Shown here: positions 24,696 through 37,632 of the stretch, piece by piece
How the letters are laid out: the number at the start of each line of letters is the position of its first letter
Position numbering within the stretch: the stretch's first letter is position 1
Source: Verrucomicrobium spinosum DSM 4136 = JCM 18804
GTDB taxonomy: Bacteria > Verrucomicrobiota > Verrucomicrobiia > Verrucomicrobiales > Verrucomicrobiaceae
DNA length: 64,000 nt
NCBI RefSeq assembly: GCF_000172155.1
Contig: NZ_ABIZ01000001.1
Location: forward strand, 7,101,105 to 7,165,104
Direction: 5' to 3'
The notes under the pieces: model-generated
The model's input: only the letters and a program-made list of their open reading frames with translations
Databases searched by the model: none
What the model was told of the DNA's origin: nothing
Translations under genes and position numbers: made by a program

Positions 24696-24729
24696 ATTTC
24701 CTTCAACCCGTCTTCATCCATCCCTTCCC

Positions 24730-25389
24730 ATGGCTGTGATTCACGCCGACCGCAGGACGGTCAACTTCAAGATCGTCTATTGCGGCACCCCCATCGGCGG
24801 CAAGACCACCAACTTGCAACACATCCACGCGTGCCTGGACCCGAAATCACGCGGGGAGCTCGTGAGTCTTTCCACCACGGCGGACCGCACCCTGTTCTTT
24901 GACTTCCTCGCTGTGGAGGCCCCCATTCTGAATGGCTACACCGCCAAGTTCCAGCTCTACACGGTGCCGGGACAAGCCGTGTACAATGCCACCTACCAGC
25001 TGGTGCTCCAGCAGGCGGACGGGCTGGTGTTTGTGGCAGACTCCCAGATGGACCGCATGCGGGAGAACGTCCAGGCCTGGGACAACTTCCGGAACAACCT
25101 GCGGCTCAACGGGCAGTCCCTCGACGAACTGCCCCTGGTCATCCAGTACAACAAGCGCGACCTTCCCAACGCAGCGCCGGTGGAATACCTGGAGTACCTC
25201 ATCAACCAGAGCACGCTCCGTTGCCAGAGCTTCGAGGCCAGCGCGGCACGAGGACATAACGTCCTGACCACGCTCAACGCCATCTCCCACGAAGTGCTTG
25301 GCCGCTTCATGGCCAAGATGCAGCAGGGCCAGGTGCCCCAGTCCATGGCCGGCCGATCCTCCAGCGCCGCTGCGATGGCAGGCGTCTGA
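24730..25389 (+). CDS. MglA-type small Ras-like GTPase
   Basis: A 219-residue GTPase; ATG 24730 is the start used by the family. The P-loop is GTPIGGKT (residues 19-26). Instead of the usual DxxG the switch II motif is TVPGQ (residues 78-82), the MglA hallmark, and NKRD (141-144) and EASAARG give base specificity. Arg53 (in DRTLFFDF) and Gln82 sit at the positions reported as the built-in catalytic residues of MglA. MglA proteins switch cell polarity or organise surface machinery and are turned off by roadblock MglB proteins; the gene before it encodes a roadblock protein. The tail (SSSAAAMAGV) has no Cys, so it cannot be prenylated at the C-terminus. Confidence 0.9.
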   Translation: MAVIHADRRTVNFKIVYCGTPIGGKTTNLQHIHACLDPKSRGELVSLSTTADRTLFFDFLAVEAPILNGYTAKFQLYTVPGQAVYNATYQLVLQQADGLVFVADSQMDRMRENVQAWDNFRNNLRLNGQSLDELPLVIQYNKRDLPNAAPVEYLEYLINQSTLRCQSFEASAARGHNVLTTLNAISHEVLGRFMAKMQQGQVPQSMAGRSSSAAAMAGV

Positions 25390-25668
25390 CACCACGAGGG
25401 CAGGCAGTCATCGGGCAAATAACGCCCATCCCTCCCGTGAGTTTGATCAGATTTCACCCGCTGCAGTGAGACATCTGGGAGACTGAGTGTGCATGATGAA
25501 ATCTAATCCATGCTGCCAACCCTTCCGCAATGCCTTTAGAATGGGCAAAGCGCCAGGTTCTATGAAATAGATGCCGGGTCCCCGGCTGCACGAACCCGCG
25601 GTCACCAGGGGATTGGCACGCATGGTGCAAGGTCGCTGAGGCTTCGCTTCAACCTTCCTCTCCCATCC

Positions 25669-27897
25669 ATGCATCCCACCTCGCTCAAGAGACCCTCCCT
25701 CGCGGGAAAATCCTGCCATGCGGCCATTGCAGCCTGCCTTCTTTGCGCCACGCTTGCCCCGGCCCAGAACCCTTCACCAGCGACCGGCAGCCTCGCAGAG
25801 GAGGTCGAACTTCCCACGGTAACCGTCACGGCGGAGACCGCCCTGCGAACCACTGAAGACCTCCGGAACATCCCTCAGTCTGTCACCGTGGTGGACAAGG
25901 AGACGCTGGAACGTCGGCAAGCGCGCACTCCGGTGGAAATGCTTCAGGAGGAGCCCGGGGTGTGGGCAGTCAGTGTGGCTGCCCAGGGCTCTCCCATCCT
26001 GCGTGGCCAGATCGGCAACCGCGTGCTCTACCTCTGGGACGGCATTCGCATCAACAACGGAGCCCTCTTTGGTGGCCCCAACGGTTTTTTCAACCAGTTC
26101 CCGGTCGGTGCGGTGGATCACATGGAGGTCATCAGGGGTGCCGGGGCCGTACAATATGGCAGTGACGCCATCGGAGGCGTGATCAACATCTTCTCAAAGC
26201 GGGCAGACTTTACGGACACGGTGCAAACCGGCGGCGAGCTCTACGGTCGCTACGGCACTAATGATCGCGAAAACACAGAGACCTTCGATTTCCACGTCAC
26301 CGGTCCCACCATGGCCTTCTCCGCAGGCCTTACTCACCAGGATGTGGACGACTACCGCGGCCCTGGTGAGGGTCGGTTGAGCCCCACCGGGTTTGAAGCT
26401 CTGGGTGGCTATGCCAATCTTGCCTTCCGGCCGGCCGAGGGGCACACTTTCCGCCTCTCCTGGATTCACAACGAACGGGAAGATGTGGACAGCTACGTAC
26501 AGTCCAAGCTGAATGCGAACGGTGTCCCCCGGCTCTTCAGCCCCACCGAGCGCCGTGGCATCGTGAAGTTTGACTACACAGCCGAGGACCTGGGTTCGTG
26601 GAGTCAAGAACTCAAGGTGTACGGGTACTACCAGTACTATGATGGCGTTCGTGATCGCCGGGTGCAGAGCGGCTCCACCATGACCACCACCCGCACGGAC
26701 ACTGAGCAGGATGTCCTCGGGGCGGGCATTCAAAACGCCGCGCAGTGGGGCAGGACACGGCTGATCTACGGCATGGACTACCGCCGGGAAGACCTCGGCT
26801 CCACGCTCACCCAGACGACGCGCCGCCCGGGTTCCACAACGGTTGCAGAGCCTTTTGGCAATACTCCTGACGGCAACTACGATGTGTTCGATGCATTCAC
26901 CACACTGGAGTTCCGCCCCACAGACGCCCTCCTGCTCTCGGTCGGTGCCCGCTTTGAAAACTCCCATCTCGACTCCGGCCCCGTAGCGAGGGATGTCATT
27001 CCGGACGCCGGCTATGATGTGGACGACCTGCGCGTGGACAAGTCCTGGCAGTCGGTGACATGGAACATCGGTGCCATCTACAGCCTCAACAAAGAGTGGG
27101 ACCTCGTGGCCAACATCGGCTCCGGCTTTCGCGCTCCGACTTACTCTGATCTCCTGAGTGCCGGACCCCCAGTGTTCTCCAGCAGAGTCGCCTCACTGCC
27201 CAGCCCCGACCTGGATCCTGAGAAGTCCATCTCCTACGAGGTTGGGCCCCGGTTCCACTCGCAACGCACCTCCGCCTCCCTTGTGGGGTATTGGACCCAG
27301 CTCTACGATCTCGTGGCTACGGAAACCTCAGGCACGGTGGTGATCCCTGGCCAGGGCACGTTTGAGGCGCAACGGAAGTCCAATAATGGGGAAGGCTATG
27401 TGGCAGGTGTTGAGTTTGCCCTCACCTACGATCTTGATGACAACTGGACGCTCTTTGGCAATGCCACCTACACCTATGGTGAGGATACCAATGCCAATGC
27501 CCCACTGCGCTTCATGCCACCCTTGTATGGCGTGGTGGGGCTCCGGTACACCGCTCCCTCCCGCCGTTGGTGGGTGGAGGTGGTGGAGGTCCTCGCCGAC
27601 CGCCTCCGCCGGCACGCCCCCACCGATGAGCAGGATGCCGGCTTCTCCACCGATCCGGCCTATGGCTCCCCCAACAGCTCCAACAACCCGCCTCTGCGGG
27701 ATGACTACGAGATCCCCGGCTGGGCAGTGACGAATGTCCGCACCGGCTTCAACATCTGGCAGCGCGACAACCGGTCCTTTGACGTCACGGTGGACTTCAA
27801 CAATGTTTTTGATACCCGCTACCGGGAGGCTTACTCCCAGCAGCAGAAGGTGGCTCCGGGCTTTGGGGTTGTTGTGGGCGCACGGTTGACCTTTTAA
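25669..27897 (+). CDS. TonB-dependent outer membrane receptor (haem-type candidate)
   Basis: A 742-residue outer-membrane receptor. After a signal peptide (to about residue 33) comes a TonB box region (LPTVTVTAE) and the plug domain (NIPQSVTVVDKETLERR, RGQIGNRVLYLWDGIRINN, VIRGAGAVQYGSDAIGGVIN). A 22-strand barrel follows and ends with NNVFDTRYREAYSQ and a terminal Phe (GARLTF), as needed for barrel assembly. The plug matches the haem/cobalamin group of receptors. It begins a tight operon: the CobN-like gene starts 3 bp after its stop, then ExbB-like and DUF2149 genes. The substrate is probably haem or another metal tetrapyrrole. The 279 bp upstream hold an 8-bp inverted repeat (25449-25456 and 25497-25504) but no clear riboswitch. 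Confidence 0.92.
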   Translation: MHPTSLKRPSLAGKSCHAAIAACLLCATLAPAQNPSPATGSLAEEVELPTVTVTAETALRTTEDLRNIPQSVTVVDKETLERRQARTPVEMLQEEPGVWAVSVAAQGSPILRGQIGNRVLYLWDGIRINNGALFGGPNGFFNQFPVGAVDHMEVIRGAGAVQYGSDAIGGVINIFSKRADFTDTVQTGGELYGRYGTNDRENTETFDFHVTGPTMAFSAGLTHQDVDDYRGPGEGRLSPTGFEALGGYANLAFRPAEGHTFRLSWIHNEREDVDSYVQSKLNANGVPRLFSPTERRGIVKFDYTAEDLGSWSQELKVYGYYQYYDGVRDRRVQSGSTMTTTRTDTEQDVLGAGIQNAAQWGRTRLIYGMDYRREDLGSTLTQTTRRPGSTTVAEPFGNTPDGNYDVFDAFTTLEFRPTDALLLSVGARFENSHLDSGPVARDVIPDAGYDVDDLRVDKSWQSVTWNIGAIYSLNKEWDLVANIGSGFRAPTYSDLLSAGPPVFSSRVASLPSPDLDPEKSISYEVGPRFHSQRTSASLVGYWTQLYDLVATETSGTVVIPGQGTFEAQRKSNNGEGYVAGVEFALTYDLDDNWTLFGNATYTYGEDTNANAPLRFMPPLYGVVGLRYTAPSRRWWVEVVEVLADRLRRHAPTDEQDAGFSTDPAYGSPNSSNNPPLRDDYEIPGWAVTNVRTGFNIWQRDNRSFDVTVDFNNVFDTRYREAYSQQQKVAPGFGVVVGARLTF

Positions 27898-27900
27898 GCC

Positions 27901-30900
27901 ATGCCTCCATCACGCCTCCTCTGGGGTGGGTTGTTCGCGGCGCTGCTGTTGGGCAGCGCCGCTCTTCCCCTTCAGTCAGCCACCGCCCCGCCTCCTCCCA
28001 CAAAGATCGCCTTTGTAGGGGTATGGGACCGGTCCATGGCCTTGGTGGATGCCGCCTGCCGCGAGCAGGGCCTGGCAGCCGTCTTTGCCAGGGCGGGTGA
28101 GTTTGGCAGGAGCACGGAGGCGGAGAATCCGGAGACGTTTCCTCTGGTCATGGTCTTGAACTTGGAGGCCGCCGAATCTCCCGGCCTGACAGACAGACTG
28201 AAAGCCACCAGGGAGAAAAACCCCCAACAGCGGGTGCTGGCCCTGGACACGCGGAGCAGTCATGTGGAGCTGGACAAGGCGGGCCTCCTGGAACAGGACC
28301 CAAAACTGATGGCCTACTGGCGGGCCAATGGTCCCGTCAACCTGAAACGCCTGATGCAATACTGCCGCGTGACCTACCTGGGCGCAGAAGGCGTGATCGA
28401 GCCGCCGGTGATCATTCCGGAGTTTGGCTATTATGATCCTGATCACGAGGCGTCGTTCGAGGAGTTCACCGCCTACCGCGAATTCAAACGATCCAGGCAC
28501 CGGTGGAAGGAAGATGCGCCCACCGCGGTGATCATCATCCAGCAGTCTTTCTGGATCACACGGGACCTGAAGGTGGTGAACGCCCAGATCACCGCTCTTG
28601 AAAAACAGGGGTTGAATGTCGTGGTGGTGTTTGGAGATCGCGAAGGACGCATGACAGAGCTGGTGAAAGCCGCCCACCCCACGTTGCTTGTTGAGGACCG
28701 GCATGGCTCCATGTGGCAGAGCAATGCCGTGATCAAGGAACTGGATGTGCCTTACCTGCGGCCCATTTCCATGCTGGGGTACACCGTGGATGAATGGCGG
28801 AAGGATCCCCGCGGGCTGTCTGTGAGGGATGTGGGCATGTTTATGTCCCTCCAGGAATCCTGGGGCACCATCGAGCCCGTGGTGGTGGGCGGCTTGCATG
28901 CGAACATCCAGGGCTTTCGGCTCCATGAGCCCATACCTGATCGCATTGAAGCCTTTGCGGCCCGTGCCGCCCGCTGGGCAAGGCTCAAGACGAAGCCTGC
29001 CGCCGGGAAGAAGCTGGCCCTCATCTACTACAACAAGGGGCTCGGACAGGATGATCTGGTTCGCGGCAGCCCCACAGGCGCCTTTCTGGACGGGCCGGAG
29101 AGCCTGGTGCGCTTTCTGCCGAGGCTGCAGCAGGCTGGATACCAGGTCAAAGACCTGCCCGCCTCCGCAGCAGAACTCATCTCAACGATGAAAAAGCGCG
29201 GCCGCAATCTCGGCCCATGGGTGCAGGGCGACCTTGAGAAACTTGCCGATGAAGGCAATCCCGTGCTGATCCCCCTTTCGACGTATCAGCGCTGGTTTCA
29301 GGAAAAACTAAACGAGGCCGGCCGGAAGGCGGTGGTGGAGAAATTCGGCCCGCCCCCGGGACGTCTCATGGTGGTGAAGCGCAATGGCGAGCCCCATCTG
29401 GTGATCCCGCGCATCGACCTGGGGAACGTGATCCTCACGCCGCAGCCTGAGCGGGGTGAGAAACAGGATGACAAGCTTTTGCACTCCCGGGATGTGCCCC
29501 CACCTCACAACTACCTCGCCTTCTACTGGTGGCTGGAGGAAGGATTCCACGCCGACGCCATCGTGCACTGGGGCACGCACGGCACTCTGGAACTGCTGCC
29601 CGGCAAAGAAGCGGGGCTCTCAGAAGATTGCTGGAGTGACATCTGCGTGGACCGGTTGGCGGTCGTGGACCTCTGGATCACTGACAATCTGGGTGAGTCC
29701 ACGCTCGCCCGTCGCCGCTCCTATGCCGCGCTCGTGGATCACATGGTACCGCCTGCCGTGGGTGCCGGATTGAAGGATGAGTTCAAAACCCTGCACGACG
29801 ACATTCACAAGTTCAACACTCTGGAAAACGGACTGCTGCGGGAGGAGTTCAGGAAACGCATCAGCCAGCAGGCACGTGCGGAATCCCTCCATGACATCGC
29901 CAAAGCATCTGCGGGAGAGGACCCGTATGCCGACGAGGCGATTGCCCGGGTGGACCAACACCTGCACGAGCTCTATGATTCCCAGACCCCGCTACGACTT
30001 CATGTCCTGGGCCAGCCGCCCGTAGCTGAGGATCTGGCACCGTACCTCGTTTCCATCCTTGGAGAGGGCTTTCTGCAGCATCTGGGTGATGCCAGTCCCT
30101 TGATCAAGAATCTGGCCCCGGAGAAACAACAGCAGCGCGACGCGGCAGCTCATCTCCTGGGCGGGGTGCTTGATGGCAAAGCAAACCCACCCTTCACCCC
30201 GACTCCTGACCTTGAAAGGGATCTGGCCTTCGCCCGGGAGATGAAAGACCGGCTCATGCAGGCAGATCGCGAGATCACGGGCATGCTCCATGCACTGGCG
30301 GGCGGATACATTGAAGCAGGCCCGGGTCCTGAGCCCATTCGCAACCCCTCCACCGTGCCCACGGGGCGGAATCTTTATTCCCTCAATCCCGAAGAGATTC
30401 CCAACAAGGCAGCATGGGAGGTGGCCCGGAAACTCGTGGACGATCTCCTGGCCACCCGGCACCCCAAGAAGATCGCCATGGATCTCAATGGCATGGAAAC
30501 CATGCGCGACTATGGTGTGATGGAAGGCCAGATCCTCTATCTCCTGGGTGTGCGCCCGGTGTGGAACCGGAGCAATCTGGTGATCGATGTTGAACTCATT
30601 CCCGCAGAGGAACTCAAACGCCCGCGTGTGGATGTGTTTGTGGCCATGGGAGGACAGTACAAAGAAAACTTCCCCTCCCGCGTGACCTTGCTGGACAAAG
30701 CCGTGAAGCTGGCCGCCTCCGCACCGGAAGCAGGCAACCCCGTGAAGGCAAGCGTGCAGGCCATGGAGGCACGGTTGCAGCAGCGCGGCTTTTCCAGCGC
30801 CCGGGCCAGCCAGTTCGCCGGAGCCCGCATTTTTGGCACCAAACCCGGCAACATGACCGGTACCAACATCCTGCATCTCGTGCCCCGCTCAGGGGTGTGG

Positions 30901-31857
30901 GACAAACCCGACGAGATCACCGGGGTGTACATGGACAACATGAGCTTCGTGTACTCTGGTGACGTCTGGGGGGAGAAGATTGAAGGGCTCTACGAAGAAG
31001 CGCTCCAGGGCACGGACACGATTCTCCGGGTCTGGGCCTCGAACATGACAAGCCAGCTCTCCAATCACCATGCTTATGAGTACCTGGGTGGACTCAATAT
31101 GGCAGTGAAGAAAGTGACTGGCAAAACACCGCAGGCTCTCATCGCGGATGTGCGCAGTCCCTCAGGAGCCCGGGTGAGGGACTTCGAGGAAGTGCTGGCC
31201 ACCAACCTAAGATCGGAACTCCTCAACAGAAAATGGCTGGAGGGCATGAAGGGCCACGACTATGCCGGGGCAGGACACATCACCGAGCTGGTAAAGAACT
31301 CCTTCGGTTGGTCCGTCACCCGCCCGGAGAGCATCTCACAAGACACGTGGAAGGACATCTACGAAGTGCTCGTCAAAGACCGGTACGAACTCGGCCTGGA
31401 GGCCTGGTTTGAAAAGGTCTCTCCACACGCCCGGCAGGAAATCACCGCCACCCTGCTGGAGGCAGCCCGCAAGGGCTTGTGGCAGGCCACCCCTCAGCAG
31501 ATCGAAGACCTCTCCCGGATTTACGCGGAGTCCATTCAGCGTCACGGTGAATCAGGCGGACTGGTCGGCGGCGGGAACACCCGCCTCGTGGACTACTCCA
31601 CTAAAGCTCTTCAGATGACCGGGGCCGACGACGATGCCCGGCGCGTGGCCGCGATGCAGGAATCCCTGGCTCAATCTGCCGGAGGCGAATCCAAGGAGAA
31701 AGTTGCGGGAACGAAGCTGGACCAGAAGCCCGTGCAAGAGACACGGCAGGAACTGGAGCCCCCCGCCACCAAGCCCCAGCTCTGGAAGTACGCCGCAGCG
31801 ACGCTGCTGGCACTTCTGCTCGCGGCAGGCTTCTTCAAGAAATCAGGTGCCCTATGA
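27901..31857 (+). CDS. Membrane-anchored CobN/HmuS-like chelatase
   Basis: A 1318-residue CobN/BchH-superfamily protein. The diagnostic motif HWGTHGTLELLPGKEAGL starts at His556, and DLNGMETMRDYGVMEGQILYLLG plus NMTGTNILHLVPRSGVWDKPDEI are the other conserved blocks. Unlike cytoplasmic CobN it has an N-terminal signal-like segment (LLWGGLFAALLLGSAALPLQSA) and a C-terminal membrane helix (YAAATLLALLLAAGFF), so it should face the periplasm and be tethered to the inner membrane. No CobS/CobT ATPase genes are nearby. With a TonB receptor, an ExbB-like channel and DUF2149 it matches the Bacteroidota HmuS context, where the protein is reported to remove iron from haem. Dechelation of imported haem is the favoured role; cobalt insertion is less likely. 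Confidence 0.88.
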   Translation: MPPSRLLWGGLFAALLLGSAALPLQSATAPPPPTKIAFVGVWDRSMALVDAACREQGLAAVFARAGEFGRSTEAENPETFPLVMVLNLEAAESPGLTDRLKATREKNPQQRVLALDTRSSHVELDKAGLLEQDPKLMAYWRANGPVNLKRLMQYCRVTYLGAEGVIEPPVIIPEFGYYDPDHEASFEEFTAYREFKRSRHRWKEDAPTAVIIIQQSFWITRDLKVVNAQITALEKQGLNVVVVFGDREGRMTELVKAAHPTLLVEDRHGSMWQSNAVIKELDVPYLRPISMLGYTVDEWRKDPRGLSVRDVGMFMSLQESWGTIEPVVVGGLHANIQGFRLHEPIPDRIEAFAARAARWARLKTKPAAGKKLALIYYNKGLGQDDLVRGSPTGAFLDGPESLVRFLPRLQQAGYQVKDLPASAAELISTMKKRGRNLGPWVQGDLEKLADEGNPVLIPLSTYQRWFQEKLNEAGRKAVVEKFGPPPGRLMVVKRNGEPHLVIPRIDLGNVILTPQPERGEKQDDKLLHSRDVPPPHNYLAFYWWLEEGFHADAIVHWGTHGTLELLPGKEAGLSEDCWSDICVDRLAVVDLWITDNLGESTLARRRSYAALVDHMVPPAVGAGLKDEFKTLHDDIHKFNTLENGLLREEFRKRISQQARAESLHDIAKASAGEDPYADEAIARVDQHLHELYDSQTPLRLHVLGQPPVAEDLAPYLVSILGEGFLQHLGDASPLIKNLAPEKQQQRDAAAHLLGGVLDGKANPPFTPTPDLERDLAFAREMKDRLMQADREITGMLHALAGGYIEAGPGPEPIRNPSTVPTGRNLYSLNPEEIPNKAAWEVARKLVDDLLATRHPKKIAMDLNGMETMRDYGVMEGQILYLLGVRPVWNRSNLVIDVELIPAEELKRPRVDVFVAMGGQYKENFPSRVTLLDKAVKLAASAPEAGNPVKASVQAMEARLQQRGFSSARASQFAGARIFGTKPGNMTGTNILHLVPRSGVWDKPDEITGVYMDNMSFVYSGDVWGEKIEGLYEEALQGTDTILRVWASNMTSQLSNHHAYEYLGGLNMAVKKVTGKTPQALIADVRSPSGARVRDFEEVLATNLRSELLNRKWLEGMKGHDYAGAGHITELVKNSFGWSVTRPESISQDTWKDIYEVLVKDRYELGLEAWFEKVSPHARQEITATLLEAARKGLWQATPQQIEDLSRIYAESIQRHGESGGLVGGGNTRLVDYSTKALQMTGADDDARRVAAMQESLAQSAGGESKEKVAGTKLDQKPVQETRQELEPPATKPQLWKYAAATLLALLLAAGFFKKSGAL

Positions 31858-32492
31858 TGGAACTCATTCAAAACTCCCTCCACCTGCTGTCCAACACGCT
31901 TCTGCTGCCCACTCTGCTGACCATGTTGGGACTGACGGCCTGGACCGCACTCCTGACGGGTGGACTGCTTCGTGAGGCCTGCATGCGACCACGGGTTCGC
32001 GGACTCCTCCGCCGTGCCTCAAGTCTGGCCAGGGTTCAGCCAACAACCTCAGCCCAGGCCTCACCTACCATACAAACCATGGAAGCCCTGCGCAGTTGCC
32101 CGGTGGGAATTCCCGCACGATTCATTGAGCGTCTGGGCGACGCCCATGATGACCGGCTGGAATGCCACAAGGCACTGGAGGATGTGGAGTCTGATGTCGC
32201 CGCAGCCCTGGCCAGGCTCACCTGGCTCACTCGAGTGGCCCCCATGCTGGGACTCATGGGCACCCTCATTCCGCTGGGTCCGGCTCTGACCGGCCTGGCA
32301 GCTGGAGACATGGCGATGCTCTCTGGAAACCTCGTGGTGGCGTTCACCGCCACGGTCATCGGCGTACTCATCGGTTGCGTTTCCTTCTCGCTCGGCCTCG
32401 TGCGGCGCAACTGGTACCAGCGCGACATGAGTGACCTCGAATACATCATTGCCCGTCTGCATCCGCCACCTCCCACCTCCAAAAGTATATGA
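31854..32492 (+). CDS. MotA/TolQ/ExbB proton channel family protein
   Basis: A 212-residue inner-membrane protein. Its first helix (LLPTLLTMLGLTAWTALLTGGLL) and the later pair (RVAPMLGLMGTLIPLGPALTGLA, then NLVVAFTATVIGVLIGCVSFSLGLV) are the ExbB/TolQ layout; the Pro/Gly-rich GLMGTLIPLG is the family signature. Its ATG overlaps the chelatase stop codon (ATGA), and its own stop overlaps the next start, so the three genes are translationally coupled. It probably couples the proton gradient to the TonB receptor or to the chelatase step, with the DUF2149 protein in the place of ExbD. Confidence 0.9.
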   Translation: MMELIQNSLHLLSNTLLLPTLLTMLGLTAWTALLTGGLLREACMRPRVRGLLRRASSLARVQPTTSAQASPTIQTMEALRSCPVGIPARFIERLGDAHDDRLECHKALEDVESDVAAALARLTWLTRVAPMLGLMGTLIPLGPALTGLAAGDMAMLSGNLVVAFTATVIGVLIGCVSFSLGLVRRNWYQRDMSDLEYIIARLHPPPPTSKSI

Positions 32493-32845
32493 TCCGCAAA
32501 AAAAGAAAGTGGGATGACGCCAGCGACGAAGATCCGGGTGCCGGATTGCTGAACCTCTTTGACGTCTGGATCGCCTTTGCCGTAGCCCTGCTGCTCGCGC
32601 TCGTCAGCTATGACACCCTGGCCCAAAAAGCCAGCACCTCCCGCACCGTCACCGTGATCAAAAACGAAGGCACTCCCGAGATGGAGATCATCACCAAAGA
32701 GGGACAGAAGATGGAGCGCTATCGCGCCAGCACGGAAACGCTCGGCGGAGATGGCGAACGGCTCGGTACGGCGTACCGCTTGAAGTCAGGGGAAGTCATC
32801 TATGTGCCGGAATCGGCCATGCCCAAATCAGCCCCCGGTCCGTAG
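32489..32845 (+). CDS. DUF2149 domain protein
   Basis: A 118-residue protein with one membrane helix near the N-terminus (LLNLFDVWIAFAVALLLALVSYD) and a small C-terminal domain (GERLGTAYRLKSGEVIYVPE) typical of DUF2149. The topology, short cytoplasmic arm, helix, then periplasmic domain, is that of ExbD/TolR, and it directly follows the ExbB-like gene with a 4-bp overlap. It is likely the stator partner of the channel. The operon ends here; 143 bp separate it from the convergent cytochrome gene. Confidence 0.88.
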   Translation: MIRKKRKWDDASDEDPGAGLLNLFDVWIAFAVALLLALVSYDTLAQKASTSRTVTVIKNEGTPEMEIITKEGQKMERYRASTETLGGDGERLGTAYRLKSGEVIYVPESAMPKSAPGP

Positions 32846-32956
32846 TCACGGCATGGAGGGATCACGGAAATGAGCCGATGGTGACATTGGGACCTGGCGG
32901 GCCGAGGAATTCTCCGCGCCCGCACCGCCTACCGCGCCAGAGCCAACGCATTGGCC

Positions 32957-32988: not shown

Positions 32989-35900
32989 TCACTTCGCTTC
33001 CAGTTTCAAATAATCCAATCCCACCATGAAGGCCTGGGCCGCGGCAGGATTCGCACCGCTGATCTTCACCACCAGCTTGTGATCCCCCGGTTGCAACACA
33101 TGGGTGCCCCAGTCCAGTTCTCCGGTGGAGATTACCGAGACGCTGTAAAGGTCCAGACTGGCCGCGGGAATGACCTCCCCGTCCAGGATCACCTCAATCG
33201 AGGCGTAGTCACGCGCTTTTGTGAGCGCAGCTTTGAGCGTGTACTTGCCGGCCTTGGTCACGGGAAGCGTGATCGCCATCGTCTCGCCGGGCGTGCCACC
33301 GGTCCACCAGAGCTGGCGCGCCTGGCTCCATTGGCCGCCAAAGCCACCCATGTTCTGGGCCCTCGCCTGCCCCTTGCTCACCGTGACTCCCTGCATGGTT
33401 TCCCCTTCGATCGCCCCTTCCACTTTGGCCGCCGCAGCGGCTCCCCCTCCGGCCGTCTGCTGCTGAAGGTACGCCACCAGATTCACCACCTGCTCCGGAG
33501 GCAGCGCGTCGAACTGGCCTTCGGGCATGGTGGAGAACTTCGAAATTTCGCGGCTTTTCACCTCTGCCTTCGTCAGGCTGAATTCCACCCCGCCCGGCAT
33601 CACCACCTTGTACCCGCTGTCTGTCTCCTCCTGCACGATGCCGCTGAGCACGCGCCCGTCATTCATGGAGAAGAGGTTGAGCTGATACGCCTTGCCGATG
33701 ACGGCATTGGGATCCAGCACGTTCTCCAGAAGATAGTCCAGATTGCCCCGGTTCGAGCCTGTCAGATCCGGTCCCACGTTCGCCCCTTCACCCAGCATGC
33801 GATGGCAGGCTCCGCAGGTGCCTCCGTACATCAGCTTGCCCTGGACCAGATCCGCCTTCTTGAGGCGTTCAGGAGTCAACAAGGCCTTGTACTTCGCCTT
33901 CCGTTGGGGCAGGTCCGCCTTGCTGGCGTTCACGGTGCCCCATACCTTTTCAATCAGGCCATCCACCTCCGGATTCTTGAGCGCCTGCAACTGCCGCACG
34001 AGGAAGGGCGACAAAGCATCCCGGGCAATGGACTTGTCTTCCACCCCTCTGAGAAGCGCCTGGGCCCCCGCAGCCGAAGATGCCAGCGTGGCCACGGCAT
34101 CCGCCTTCTCGGCCGGAGCAAGCGAGGCATACACCTTCGTCAGAACGACCGGCGTCTCCGGATGTGAAAGGGACGCCAGCGCCTGCACCGCACTGCGGGT
34201 GAGCGCAGCATCTCCATTCACCACCAGCTGCTGCATGAGCACCGCACTTTGATCATCCCGCACCTGCAAAAGCACTTGCAGAGCACGGTCCCGACGTGAA
34301 CCCGCAGCGGCCTTGTCCATCAACAACTCCCGGTGCTTCTGCACTGCGGCCGGGTCACCAAAGTACGCAGACAGTTCATCCACCAGCGCCTTCACCGGCT
34401 CGGAGGCTCCGGCGCGGAGTTTCCCTGAGATGCCTGCCCACTCTTTGGGCGCCGCGAGTTTCCCAGAACCCCTGGCGGAGGCCACCAGCAGGTTGAGCAG
34501 CCTCTCCCTTTCGCCAGCATCATCATTCACCGCTATGGCCGCCAGAATGGCCTGCCGCCCCTCATCGCTGCCCGCCATGCGGCGGTAGATGTATCCAGTC
34601 ACCTGTTCAAGCTTGCTGGAGGCCGCAAGCTTCAGCCCTGCTTCGCCATCCGCCCCGACAAGAGGCTCAATGCCATACCAGAGCAGGAGCGGGATGTTCG
34701 GATCCTGCTTGTCTTCCTCGCGCCCGATCAAACCCAAAGCGATCTTGGATCGCTCTGGCAACGGAAGACGCTGCAGCAACGAAGCGAGCTCGCGACGCAC
34801 CAGGGGCGACTTCTCCTGCTGGGCAAGTCGCTCCAAAGCATCGTGAAGGGCAGGCCGGTAAGCGATGCCCAACTGGCCCATCAGGCGCACCGACCAGGCA
34901 CGCAACTCAGGCTCGGGCCGGTCCAGCAGGCTGGTCAGGAGAGTTTGCTCAACGGAGCCGATGACCGAAAGCCCCCACAAAGCCTTCAACCGGCGCTCCA
35001 CCGGACCAGATCCATTCAGGGCTGCCCGCAGAGCGTCTTTGGCCGGGTCATCCACCCGCCCGTCTTCCGCCTTCTCCATCAACAGGCGCTGCGCCATCCT
35101 AGCCTGCCAGGAGTTCGAGGAGTCCAGGAGCATTCCGACCAGCGCCGTATCGCTTTTGCCCGCAGGCAGGTCCTTCGCCCATGCAGTGTTGAGCTGGTCA
35201 TACACCACCCGGAAAATTCTGCCGTTTGTGCGGTTCCAGATCTGAACGTCCTTGTGGTGGCAGGTCTGCTCGTCATACCAGTCCGAGACATACAGCGCCC
35301 CGTCCGGCCCCACCCGCTGGGTCACGGGAATGAACCAGTGATCGTTCGACCTCATGAAATCCGGCCGGCGCTGCCCGGTGTACCCACTCAGGGCGGGCTC
35401 CACCGCATTGTGCACCAGGCGATGCCCGTGGAGGTTGCCAAAGAGCAGCGCGCCGCGGTAGAGTTCAGGGAAATTATCTCCCTGGTAGATGGCAAGCCCG
35501 CAGTGGGCATGGCCGCCGCCGGCCTGGTCGGTGCTGGCGGGCACAGCCAGGTTTTTCAGCTCCTTGCGATCGCCCCAGGCGGCATGGTCCTTGACCTCGC
35601 CGGCGTAGTGACGGTGCTCGGCGATGGTCTTGATGTCGTCATACGTGTAGGGGTTGAAATGCTGCCCTGCCTGCCGTTGATACCTTCCACCCGGCAGGAT
35701 GTGGTAGAGGTGCGGGATGACACACGCGGTGACAAAGAACTCGCCGTGGTCATTGAAGTCCAGCCCCCAGGGATTGCTGGTGCCGTGGGCAAACACCTCA
35801 AACTTGTGCTGCGTGGGATGATACCGCCACACGCCGGCGTTCAGGGGCTGGCGCTCCTTGTCCGGAGTACCTGGCCTGCCCACCAAGGAGTGCGTGAAGA

Positions 35901-37632
35901 CCCCATGACAGCCATAGAGCCAGCCATCCGGCCCCCAGATGAAGGAGTTCAACGTCTCGTGCGTGTCCTGGTTGCCCCAGCCGTCCAGCAGGGCCACGGG
36001 CTCCCCGTCCGGCTTGTCATCGTGATCCTTGTCAGGAATGAAGAGAAAGTTGGGAGCGGCCCCGATCCAGACACCACCGAAGCCCACCTCAATGCCACTC
36101 ACGAGGTTGAGCTTTTCCATAAACACCTTCCGGGTCTCAAAGCTGCCATTGCCGTCCATGTCTTCAAAGATGAGGATGCGGTCCCTGCCCTCACCCGGCT
36201 TCGCTGGCTGGGGGTAGGTGTTCCCCTCCACCACCCAGATGCGCCCGCGCTCGTCCCAGCACATCGCAATGGGCTGCACCAGATCCGGCTCGGCGGCAAT
36301 GAGGTCCACTTTGAACCCCTCCGGCACGACCATGTTCTTCACGGCATCCGCCGCTGACTGCCCCACGACATACGCCTCCGACCTGAGGGAATCCGGTCCA
36401 TAGATCTTCCGCGGCTGGAACTGGGCGTACCGCGCTGCCTCCACCTGCTCGCGTTTCTGGACGAGGACATAACATCCCGCCTTGTTCCCGATGACCACGT
36501 CCACCAGCCCGTCACCATTCACATCACCCGTGGTGAGCTGCGTGCCCACCCCGCTGGCGCTGTCCATGAGATGGGGCACAAAGCTGACTCCGCCCTTCTT
36601 GTCCCGCTGCGTCTTGAACCAGTAGATGACCCGCGGGTCCCGCTCGTTGGGATCATGCCCGTTGTGCGCCCAGTAGCGCTTCCCGGTGATGATGTCCTTC
36701 AGACCGTCCCCGTCCACATCCACCAGCGCAAGGGCATGCGGCTGGCTGAAGCGCACGCCGTATTCATTCTCCCAGGGCTCCTGACCCACGATCGTGTGCT
36801 TGACCCAGCTCGGCCCATCGCCTCCCTTGCCGGCCTGGTTTTCAAACCACGCCACGCCGAACTGGTGCGCATTCAACGAGGAAACAACATCATTGTCTCC
36901 GTCTCCATCGAAGTCATAAGCGAACATCTGCGCCCCACCCCCGCCTGTGAGTTGAAAGGTCCTGGAGGGCCACACCGCCTCACCGGGCGTATTCTTCCAC
37001 CAGCGTCGCGACTCCAGCAGATCCAGCCTGCCGTCACCGTCCACATCCCCCACTCCCATGCCGTGCGTGAAGCGCTGCACCTTCACGTCATCGGTTAGAG
37101 GAACAAACTCCCATTTCGCGTTTGAGTCCGCCGCCGGGGATGCGTAGCCAAAGCGGCCGTTCTGTGAGCACACAATTTCCGGTTTCCCGTCCCCGGTGAT
37201 GTCCGTGAACTCCGGTGATTCATTGTCCACCACGTCCAGCACCACATGCATTTTCCAGGTGGCGGTGTTTGCGCCCGGGTTCTCATACCAGCGCGCCTCC
37301 TTGCCCGGGAAGCCCAGCACCAGCACATCCTGCCACCCGTCGCCGTTCAGGTCCGGCGTGTACACGAAGAAATTGTCTGAGTACCCGTTATTGGAGAACT
37401 CCTTGCCCGGATAGAAGGTGTGACGCTTCGTCAAGTCCGGTCCCTCCCACCAATACGGTCCGTACACGATGTCGCTTTTGCCGTCGCGGTTCAGATCACC
37501 GACGGCCGATCCTTCACCAAAGAAGCGGGTCTCCAGTTGTTGTTTTTCAAACCGGATCAGGGTCTCTGCCGATGCCGCACCAGCAAGAGCCAGCGTGGTC
37601 GTCAGAATGAGTGAAAGTCGGACATTGGCCAT
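32989..37632 (-). CDS. PVC-type cytochrome c protein with VCBS/FG-GAP propeller
   Basis: A 1547-residue secreted protein. Signal peptide residues 1-22. Residues about 35-410 carry FG-GAP/VCBS repeats with calcium-loop patterns (DLNRDGKSDIVYGPYW, DVDGDGRLDLLE, DVNGDGLVDVVIG). Residues about 430-830 are the PVC dehydrogenase-like propeller (VPEGFKVDLIAAEPDLVQPIAM, GRIWVVEGNTYPQP, DGALYVSDWYDEQT). HEAT-like repeats follow (about 850-1200). The haem site CGACH is at 1273-1277 with a likely axial Met in FSTMPEG. The end (about 1410-1547) is a carbohydrate-binding-like sandwich (MAITLPVTKAGKYTLKAAL). It probably oxidises a carbohydrate in the periplasm. A 32-bp element 50 bp upstream is shared with the third cytochrome gene. 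Confidence 0.9.
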   Translation of the reverse strand: MANVRLSLILTTTLALAGAASAETLIRFEKQQLETRFFGEGSAVGDLNRDGKSDIVYGPYWWEGPDLTKRHTFYPGKEFSNNGYSDNFFVYTPDLNGDGWQDVLVLGFPGKEARWYENPGANTATWKMHVVLDVVDNESPEFTDITGDGKPEIVCSQNGRFGYASPAADSNAKWEFVPLTDDVKVQRFTHGMGVGDVDGDGRLDLLESRRWWKNTPGEAVWPSRTFQLTGGGGAQMFAYDFDGDGDNDVVSSLNAHQFGVAWFENQAGKGGDGPSWVKHTIVGQEPWENEYGVRFSQPHALALVDVDGDGLKDIITGKRYWAHNGHDPNERDPRVIYWFKTQRDKKGGVSFVPHLMDSASGVGTQLTTGDVNGDGLVDVVIGNKAGCYVLVQKREQVEAARYAQFQPRKIYGPDSLRSEAYVVGQSAADAVKNMVVPEGFKVDLIAAEPDLVQPIAMCWDERGRIWVVEGNTYPQPAKPGEGRDRILIFEDMDGNGSFETRKVFMEKLNLVSGIEVGFGGVWIGAAPNFLFIPDKDHDDKPDGEPVALLDGWGNQDTHETLNSFIWGPDGWLYGCHGVFTHSLVGRPGTPDKERQPLNAGVWRYHPTQHKFEVFAHGTSNPWGLDFNDHGEFFVTACVIPHLYHILPGGRYQRQAGQHFNPYTYDDIKTIAEHRHYAGEVKDHAAWGDRKELKNLAVPASTDQAGGGHAHCGLAIYQGDNFPELYRGALLFGNLHGHRLVHNAVEPALSGYTGQRRPDFMRSNDHWFIPVTQRVGPDGALYVSDWYDEQTCHHKDVQIWNRTNGRIFRVVYDQLNTAWAKDLPAGKSDTALVGMLLDSSNSWQARMAQRLLMEKAEDGRVDDPAKDALRAALNGSGPVERRLKALWGLSVIGSVEQTLLTSLLDRPEPELRAWSVRLMGQLGIAYRPALHDALERLAQQEKSPLVRRELASLLQRLPLPERSKIALGLIGREEDKQDPNIPLLLWYGIEPLVGADGEAGLKLAASSKLEQVTGYIYRRMAGSDEGRQAILAAIAVNDDAGERERLLNLLVASARGSGKLAAPKEWAGISGKLRAGASEPVKALVDELSAYFGDPAAVQKHRELLMDKAAAGSRRDRALQVLLQVRDDQSAVLMQQLVVNGDAALTRSAVQALASLSHPETPVVLTKVYASLAPAEKADAVATLASSAAGAQALLRGVEDKSIARDALSPFLVRQLQALKNPEVDGLIEKVWGTVNASKADLPQRKAKYKALLTPERLKKADLVQGKLMYGGTCGACHRMLGEGANVGPDLTGSNRGNLDYLLENVLDPNAVIGKAYQLNLFSMNDGRVLSGIVQEETDSGYKVVMPGGVEFSLTKAEVKSREISKFSTMPEGQFDALPPEQVVNLVAYLQQQTAGGGAAAAAKVEGAIEGETMQGVTVSKGQARAQNMGGFGGQWSQARQLWWTGGTPGETMAITLPVTKAGKYTLKAALTKARDYASIEVILDGEVIPAASLDLYSVSVISTGELDWGTHVLQPGDHKLVVKISGANPAAAQAFMVGLDYLKLEAK

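What the first reader, a model, noticed from the sequence alone, without database searches (positions are those of the whole stretch)
25669..32845. Four-gene TonB receptor/CobN-like/ExbB/DUF2149 operon resembling a haem dechelation system
The four genes are tightly packed (3-bp gap, then two 4-bp start-stop overlaps) and have the same make-up as the Bacteroidota Hmu locus, in which a CobN-like protein is reported to strip iron from haem. The chelatase here has both a signal-like N-terminus and a C-terminal membrane helix, so it should work in the periplasm beside the receptor. No CobS/CobT gene is near. A verrucomicrobial version is little described to my knowledge.
Basis: partly seen in the sequence, partly recalled or inferred. 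Interest (0 to 1): 0.72.

Follow-up and report, generated by a model that had tools for sequence, protein, structure and literature searches.

The report
Sister lineage of haem-stripping HmuS operons
A verrucomicrobial bacterium carries a compact four-gene set that probably pulls a metal-bearing pigment such as haem into the space between its two membranes and takes the metal out; the key enzyme is a close cousin of a recently described gut-bacterial enzyme, but not the same one.

Summary
In detail: receptor R, CobN-like S, ExbB-like U and DUF2149 V lie in line, spaced +3, -4 and -4 bp. The haem reading is partly supported. S is not a cobaltochelatase: it groups with HmuS (100/100), apart from CobN; it has signal-like and anchor segments; CobT was not found in the genome. 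It keeps both active-site histidines of HmuS (His560, His1057); the second occurs in 21 of 21 distinct rows of its clade and 0 of 18 CobN-type rows. But it is not HmuS: it forms its own clade across four phyla, lacks the Met-rich insertion, and has Leu for the haem ligand Met79. The operon lacks hmuY and hmuT, and its annotated make-up matches zinc-regulated PA1922-1925 of Pseudomonas, so gene content alone does not show haem; the receptor's haem label failed a control. Best reading: a periplasmic reverse chelatase, substrate probably haem. Verrucomicrobiota also hold a different, HmuS-clade type. A same-genus genome lacks the operon at the same place.

The parts
25669..27897 (+). R: TonB-dependent outer-membrane receptor, 742 aa, plug and barrel
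   Evidence: PF07715, PF00593; best NCBIfam TIGR01785 TonB-hemin 213.6 bits, under its cut-off of 316.85; profile of 17 receptors best matches PhuR 8the, E 2.4e-62; the control shows the haem label is not discriminating. A signal-like start is seen by eye only; the hydropathy scan gave no segment over threshold
27901..31857 (+). S: periplasmic CobN/ChlH/HmuS-fold protein, 1318 aa, proposed reverse chelatase
   Evidence: PF02514 976 bits; best PDB sequence match HmuS 9d26, E 2e-165; tree sister to HmuS 100/100; model of residues 32-1230 pLDDT 82.2, Foldseek best 9d26
27901..27987 (+). signal-like N-terminus of S (residues 1-29)
   Evidence: hydrophobic stretch 6-24, KD 1.89; no dedicated signal-peptide predictor was available
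28702..28704 (+). His268 of S = HmuS His254 (haem site 1); the partner Met79 is Leu88 here
   Evidence: alignment: His 21 of 21 distinct clade rows, Met79 3 of 21
29578..29580 (+). His560 of S = HmuS His538, essential for dechelation in HmuS
   Evidence: H538A result read in PMC12583661 section 20; conserved in every row counted, CobN included
31069..31071 (+). His1057 of S = HmuS His1209, second active-site histidine
   Evidence: 21 of 21 clade rows, 26 of 28 HmuS-clade rows, 1 of 6 other-cassette rows, 0 of 18 CobN-type rows
31078..31080 (+). Glu1060 of S = HmuS Glu1212
   Evidence: 21 of 21 clade rows, 26 of 28 HmuS-clade rows, 1 of 6 other-cassette rows, 0 of 18 CobN-type rows
31780..31836 (+). 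C-terminal membrane anchor of S (residues 1294-1312)
   Evidence: KD 1.68; a C-terminal hydrophobic segment in 15 of 18 relatives with a complete C-terminus
31854..32492 (+). U: ExbB/MotA/TolQ-type proton-channel subunit, 212 aa
   Evidence: PF01618 41.3 bits; conserved GTLIPLGPAL and VAFTATV stretches in an alignment of 17
32489..32845 (+). V: DUF2149, 118 aa, one N-terminal membrane helix with an invariant Asp25, then a soluble tail
   Evidence: PF09919 94.9 bits; Asp25 in 18 of 18; helix at 21-39; profile comparison with one ExbD gave no significant match
25390..32916 (.). stretch absent at the same place in a same-genus genome (G217), where 621 bp lie between matching flanks
   Evidence: flanks 89% and 92% identical on one contig; within the 621 bp only a 32-bp match to window 32855-32886 was found

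Best explanation
The operon is a metallo-tetrapyrrole salvage system that works like Hmu. The receptor R brings a metal-bearing tetrapyrrole, most likely haem, through the outer membrane. S, exported and tethered to the inner membrane by its C-terminal helix, holds it in the central cleft between His560 and His1057 (backed by Glu1060) and runs the class I chelatase reaction backwards, releasing the metal and the empty ring in the periplasm. The metal, if iron, would then enter through FeoB, for which the genome has a candidate elsewhere. U and V form an ExbB-type proton-driven motor that energises the receptor, S, or both. Shown here: gene set, order, conservation, phylogeny, active-site residues, hydrophobic segments, no CobT found. 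Inferred: export, direction of the reaction, haem as substrate, role of U and V. S belongs to its own clade, sister to HmuS.
For: Tree of 35 rows: window clade 100/100, HmuS clade 100/100, the two together 100/100, CobN apart at 100/99 (same relation of the main groups with 75 rows). The residue pair read as the dechelation site of HmuS (His538/His1209, Glu1212; PMC12583661 section 14) is complete in 21 of 21 distinct clade rows, while position 1209 is His in 0 of 18 CobN-type rows and 1 of 6 other-cassette rows. His254 of haem site 1 is kept in 21 of 21, against 0 of 18 CobN-type and 1 of 6 other-cassette rows. HmuS 9d26 is the best sequence match and best Foldseek match, TMq 0.81. No CobT; no ChlID-like subunit over cut-off; no cobalamin riboswitch found in the genome (150 of 842 candidates scored). 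A FeoB candidate is present, a 734-aa frame with 200.7 bits to FeoB_N. The receptor profile best matches the haem receptor PhuR over most of its length.
Against: S lacks features that PMC12583661 calls HmuS-defining: Met79 (Leu88 here) and the Met-rich insertion (67 aa without Met, against 127-316 aa in three Bacteroidota HmuS), and also Arg256, Gln299 and Trp1202. VIA-align ranks CobN 7c6o (Z 48.2) and ChlH above HmuS 9d26 (Z 41.1), so the fold does not discriminate. The receptor's TonB-hemin label is also the top one for the receptors of a hydrogenase-linked (205 bits) and a cobamide-linked (236 bits) cassette, while receptors of three hmu operons score 83-140 bits. No invariant or nearly invariant His in 17 receptors. 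No Fur-like site upstream better than shuffles. L039, inside the clade, has its S-U-V next to a cobalamin riboswitch and B12-salvage genes; and the one other-cassette row that shares His1209/Glu1212, Azospirillum L072, also has a cobalamin riboswitch just after its V gene. No activity was tested.
Confidence: 0.56

Rival explanations
1. Zinc (or other non-iron metal) acquisition: the operon is the counterpart of Pseudomonas aeruginosa PA1922-1925, and S strips zinc from a carrier or tetrapyrrole.
For: PA1922-1925 is annotated as TonB receptor, CobN-like, ExbD family and DUF2149 in the same order, and is in the Zur regulon (Table 2 passage of PMC9431628; passage of PMC8456098). That is a closer match of gene content than hmuYRSTUV.
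Against: No Zur-like site upstream of the window's operon better than shuffles (a weak test with a recalled proteobacterial consensus). The HmuS-type His/Glu pair is kept. The PA1923 sequence could not be obtained, so its clade is unknown.
Confidence: 0.17
2. Cobamide or cobalt salvage (the BtuS idea of Rodionov 2003, as cited in PMC6460266): R imports corrinoids and S acts on them.
For: L039, inside this clade, has S-U-V 62 bp upstream of a cobalamin riboswitch followed by a BtuF-like (PF01497), a PF02277 and a CobS (PF02654) gene. Related cassettes in Trichlorobacter (L073) and a Comamonadaceae plasmid (L080) lie just downstream of cobalamin riboswitches, and Azospirillum L072, which has His1209/Glu1212, has one just after V.
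Against: 1 of 21 clade loci scanned has a cobalamin riboswitch (L040, L053, L054 not scanned, several loci cut upstream), none in the window and none found in the host genome (150 of 842 candidates scored). L073 and L080, the two cassettes downstream of such riboswitches, carry Asp, not His, at position 1209.
Confidence: 0.16
3. Ordinary cobaltochelatase subunit CobN misplaced next to a receptor.
For: Superfamily-level similarity: PF02514, and VIA-align's top chain is CobN 7c6o.
Against: Separate clade, signal-like N-terminus and anchor, no CobT, no ChlID-like subunit over cut-off, none of the letters common in CobN-type rows at 1198/1209/1212.
Confidence: 0.02
4. The four genes form a true HmuS system that merely lost hmuY and hmuT.
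For: Sister position and shared His/Glu site. Some HmuS-clade rows are also short in the insertion (L013, L014, L023, L026, L030 under 90 aa) or deviate at Met79 (L078).
Against: S lies outside a 100/100 HmuS clade that holds both Bacteroidota and verrucomicrobial members; 21 of the 21 verrucomicrobial rows with that region keep Met79 and 22 of 22 His-Gly-Arg.
Confidence: 0.09

Closest known systems
HmuS haem de-chelatase and the hmuYRSTUV operon of Bacteroidota (PMC12583661, PDB 9d26)
   Same: Class I chelatase fold, membrane-tethered periplasmic CobN-like protein next to TonB-receptor, ExbB-type and DUF2149 genes; His538/His1209/Glu1212 and His254 positions kept
   Different: No HmuY, no HmuT, no Met-rich insertion, Met79/Arg256/Gln299/Trp1202 changed, Asp1208 is His; separate clade
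Pseudomonas aeruginosa PA1922-1925 (PMC9431628, PMC8456098)
   Same: Four genes annotated as the same types in the same order (the third as ExbD family)
   Different: Zur-regulated there; no Zur-like site found here by a weak scan; PA1923 sequence not compared
B12-riboswitch-linked CobN-like cassettes (Trichlorobacter lovleyi plasmid L073, Comamonadaceae plasmid L080)
   Same: CobN-like, ExbB and DUF2149 genes together
   Different: Gene order U-V-S, cobalamin riboswitch upstream, Asp instead of His at position 1209, extra DUF2162 gene in L073
Verrucomicrobial HmuS-clade genes, often U-V-S (for example L005, L013, L014)
   Same: Same phylum, CobN-like with ExbB and DUF2149
   Different: These keep Met79, His-Gly-Arg, Gln299 and group with Bacteroidota HmuS; no receptor was detected in the 18 kb read around these three
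CobN cobaltochelatase (PDB 7c6o, 9uk9)
   Same: Fold and superfamily-wide His538
   Different: CobN works with CobS/CobT (general knowledge); here signal-like start and anchor, no CobT found, different active-site letters

Membership tests
HmuS | Placement inside the HmuS clade | tested here: not met
   Sister clade, both groups 100/100
HmuS | Met-rich insertion in domain IV | tested here: not met
   67 residues with 0 Met in the window; 127-316 residues in three Bacteroidota HmuS; but 68-352 in 25 verrucomicrobial HmuS-clade rows, five of them under 90
HmuS | Met79 axial haem ligand | tested here: not met
   Leu88 in the window; Met in 3 of 21 distinct clade rows; in HmuS-clade rows with that region 23 of 24, L078 has Arg
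HmuS | His254 with Gly255-Arg256 | tested here: inconclusive
   His 21 of 21 and Gly 20 of 21, but Arg256 0 of 21
HmuS | His538 in the HFG(T/A)HG motif (superfamily-wide) | tested here: met
   His560 in HWGTHG; 21 of 21
HmuS | His1209 and Glu1212 (LSLDHxxEFMGG) | tested here: met
   His1057 and Glu1060 in LSNHHAYEYLGG; 21 of 21; 0 of 18 CobN-type rows. Other letters of the motif differ
HmuS | N- and C-terminal membrane segments | tested here: met
   Hydropathy scan residues 6-24 and 1294-1312; the N-terminus looks like a cleavable signal, by eye
HmuS | hmuYRSTUV operon | tested here: not met
   R-S-U-V only; PF14064 HmuY not found in the genome, though no control rang
HmuS | NADH-dependent release of PPIX and Fe(II) from haem | not testable with these tools
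   needs protein
CobN cobaltochelatase | Clusters with CobN of cob operons | tested here: not met
CobN cobaltochelatase | CobT partner in the genome | tested here: not met
   TIGR01651 none; the control Caulobacter rang
CobN cobaltochelatase | CobS partner in the genome | not tested
   its own model was not searched; TIGR02442 (ChlID-like subunit) had no match over cut-off
BtuS (B12-regulated CobN-like) | Cobalamin riboswitch control | tested here: not met
   none in the window; none found in the genome, 150 of 842 candidates scored
PA1922-1925 type | Four gene types in the same order | tested here: met
   by annotation only, from the gene table in PMC9431628, where the third gene is called ExbD
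PA1922-1925 type | Zur control | tested here: inconclusive
   no site above shuffles with a recalled consensus
PA1922-1925 type | S groups with PA1923 | not tested

The most novel reading that the evidence does not exclude
In this family and its relatives the ExbB/DUF2149 pair is the motor of the chelatase itself rather than of the receptor: CobN and ChlH are driven in the cytoplasm by ATP-burning AAA+ partners (general knowledge), and where the enzyme has moved to the ATP-free periplasm a proton-driven ExbB-type motor has taken their place. The window clade would be a version with an altered first haem site (no Met79, no Met-rich insertion) that might take other metallo-tetrapyrroles as well. 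Support: U-V stays beside S where no receptor was detected in the stretch read (L039, L055, L080, L123, L124, L125; searched with five receptor queries at E 1e-3), while 6 of 6 annotated CobN plasmid loci gave no U or V match. Against: seven verrucomicrobial HmuS-clade genes gave no U or V match in the 15-20 kb read (L116-L122), nor did Cupriavidus L071, and HmuS alone is reported to make PPIX in vitro with NADH (PMC12583661).
Probability: 0.23. Interest if true: 0.82.

Novelty: new variant of a known kind. Interest (0 to 1): 0.52.

Why it matters
[quoted passage not shown] This operon defines a second, well-supported lineage next to HmuS, spread over four phyla, which keeps the proposed dechelation site but has an altered first haem site and no Met-rich insertion. 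It is a natural experiment on which parts of HmuS are needed, and it warns that receptor, CobN-like, ExbB and DUF2149 genes together do not by themselves mean haem.

Tried and rejected
Receptor family label as proof of haem: rejected after the control (both receptors beside the Pseudoalteromonas cassette even pass the TonB-hemin cut-off, and the second Trichlorobacter receptor is B12-type). Promoter and terminator scan: 4 promoter-like sites against 1.4 expected, one of them (25513-25542) upstream of R; 7 terminator-like against 6.4 expected; not used. DUF2149 as an ExbD homologue: the invariant Asp25 near the start of the helix looks like ExbD, but hhalign against one ExbD gave probability 0.1%, and the DUF2149 model was poor (pLDDT 62.6), so no fold search was made with it. 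Fold comparison of S: all class I chelatases match, and Foldseek and VIA-align disagree on the first rank, so it was not used to choose. Recent foreign origin from base composition: operon 61.1% G+C against 61.6% for the window; third codon positions 0.69-0.74 against 0.71 and 0.77 in two neighbouring genes; no clear support. Haem auxotrophy as an argument: PF00762 is missing, but also in the sister genomes that lack the operon, so it does not explain the operon.
Full report
Observation. The window lies in an 8,220,857-bp single-contig genome with one PF02514 match. Identification with Verrucomicrobium spinosum rests on my recall of its genome size; no call names it.

Conservation. Scanning one genome per species with two peptide patterns gave 40 distinct loci. 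Of these, 24 (L031-L054) are close, 46-75% identical in the best segment, from Verrucomicrobiota, Planctomycetota, Acidobacteriota, Lentisphaerota and one MAG titled only 'bacterium' (two loci). 15 of 24 show R-S-U-V in order, 7 are cut or fragmentary, and 2 have S-U-V without a receptor directly upstream. No other gene family recurs in more than 3 of the 25 stretches compared. Two peptide patterns mean limited recall.

Accessory status. In a same-genus genome (G217) the flanks match at 89% and 92% on one contig, but 621 bp, with only a 32-bp match inside, stand in place of the 7,527-bp stretch 25390-32916. None of the six other sampled genomes of the family has a PF02514 match. Base composition does not betray a recent arrival.

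What S is. The best sequence match among solved structures is HmuS 9d26. In a 75-row tree and a 35-row careful tree the window clade, the HmuS clade, a mixed group of other cassettes and CobN are each well supported; the window clade is sister to HmuS at 100/100. Many rows deviate in letter make-up and L071 is a long branch. The CobN-type rows were assigned by the tree; six of them are annotated CobN on plasmids. PF02514 occurs in 46 of 387 phylum genomes; 30 of these loci were read. Apart from three R-S-U-V loci (L001, L004, L008) and two others (L002, L003), 25 are HmuS-like: 14 show U-V beside S in the order U-V-S, 7 do not, 4 are cut by contig ends (L029 and L030 were not in the tree).

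Active site. Residues described for HmuS (PMC12583661: abstract, sections 12, 14, 20, 21 and passages seen) were mapped on Bacteroides finegoldii HmuS (L076), whose numbering equals B. theta's at Met79, His254 and His538; later positions were shifted by 104 on the LSLDH motif. Distinct rows: His1209 in 21 of 21 window-clade, 3 of 3 Bacteroidota HmuS, 23 of 25 verrucomicrobial HmuS-clade, 1 of 6 other-cassette and 0 of 18 CobN-type rows. His254 in 21 of 21 window-clade, 1 of 6 other-cassette and 0 of 18 CobN-type rows. Met79 in 3 of 21 window-clade rows; Arg256, Gln299 and Trp1202 in 0 of 21. The Met-rich insertion is absent from the window (67 residues, no Met). These markers are not absolute: L078 has Arg at 79, five verrucomicrobial HmuS-clade rows have short insertions, and Trp1202 and Ser1014 vary in that clade too. 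Reading: the proposed dechelation site is intact, the first haem site is altered.

Export and partners. S has a signal-like start and a C-terminal hydrophobic segment (the latter in 15 of 18 relatives with a complete C-terminus). The genome search found no CobT, no ChlID-like subunit over cut-off, no cobalamin riboswitch (150 of 842 candidates scored), and one good FeoB candidate. HmuY was not found, but no control genome rang. V has an invariant Asp in its helix in 18 of 18; a test for ExbD kinship was negative.

Which metal? Gene content does not decide. P. aeruginosa PA1922-1925 is annotated as the same four genes under Zur. Trichlorobacter and Comamonadaceae cassettes lie behind cobalamin riboswitches, and an Azospirillum cassette, the one other-cassette row with the His/Glu pair, has one just after V. 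A Runella plasmid cassette lies between hypF and hypCDE with a protein weakly like NicO and DsbD_2, below both cut-offs. In the window clade, L039 neighbours a B12-salvage operon. The receptor looks haem-type, but so do the receptors of the Runella and Trichlorobacter cassettes. What favours haem is the His/Glu site shared with HmuS and the sister position.

Structure. The model of residues 32-1230 (pLDDT 82.2, pTM 0.78) matches 9d26 best by Foldseek (E 8e-72) and 7c6o best by VIA-align (Z 48.2, against 41.1 for 9d26): the fold confirms the superfamily only.

Literature. Searches 'HmuS heme' (30 of 124 listed), 'CobN/DUF2149' (20 of 231), 'PA1923 zinc' (8 of 9), 'BtuS CobN TonB' (15 of 41), 'Verrucomicrobium spinosum heme' (12 of 13), 'CobN nickel TonB hypF' (8 of 24) and 'Verrucomicrobia HmuS' (8 of 18) listed no title on a verrucomicrobial HmuS-like operon; only open-licence papers are held. 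PMC6460266 (passages) names the BtuS class after Rodionov 2003 and reports that a B. fragilis btuS1 btuS2 mutant grows poorly on haem iron yet still forms PPIX, which conflicts in part with the 2025 enzyme data. PMC13227078 (passages and section 3.1) also finds HmuS apart from CobN and ChlH, and names haem sites I and II in P. gingivalis HmuS. PMC3403914 (passages) already noted for the Trichlorobacter plasmid that its CobN has no CobS/CobT and a distinct role, exactly which being unknown.

Verdict. Real, conserved, not cobaltochelatase; a distinct sister lineage of HmuS that probably strips a metal, likely iron, from a tetrapyrrole in the periplasm. Interest 0.52.

Noticed in passing
whole genome G000 and Verrucomicrobiota: No ferrochelatase (PF00762) match in the window's genome or in any of the 7 sampled genomes of its family (own included), though HemB is present and AhbD has only matches far under its cut-off; 116 of 387 phylum genomes have PF00762. 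A cytochrome c domain protein is encoded right beside the operon, so haem is needed: an unknown ferrochelatase or haem uptake is implied.
   Followed up: partly
Of 46 phylum genomes with a PF02514 match only 3 (G134, G162, G320) have PF00762, against 113 of the other 341; this is confounded by shared ancestry.
   Followed up: no
L077 1572-9606: Runella slithyformis plasmid: TonB receptor, a protein weakly like NicO, ExbB, DUF2149 and CobN-like genes sit between hypF and hypCDE, hinting at nickel taken from an organic complex.
   Followed up: partly
L116-L122: Seven verrucomicrobial HmuS-clade genes stand without detectable receptor, U, V, T or Y genes in the 15-20 kb read.
   Followed up: partly
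L039 11440-11639: Cobalamin riboswitch 62 bp after DUF2149, followed by BtuF-like, PF02277 and CobS genes; the only such case in 21 clade loci scanned.
   Followed up: yes
L072 10465-10682: Azospirillum brasilense plasmid: CobN-like protein with the HmuS-type His/Glu pair, ExbB and DUF2149, then a cobalamin riboswitch and ABC-transporter genes.
   Followed up: no
window 32989-37632 (-): 1547-aa protein with FG-GAP, DUF7133, HEAT and cytochrome c matches downstream of the operon, on the other strand.
   Followed up: no
window 24727-25389 (+): Small Arf/Ras-type GTPase gene directly upstream; a 1005-aa Pro/Ala-rich protein without Pfam match precedes it.
   Followed up: no
L071 5542-14606: Cupriavidus plasmid holds a CobN-like gene, a long branch in the tree, and a CobN-type gene with one frame between them.
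   Followed up: no
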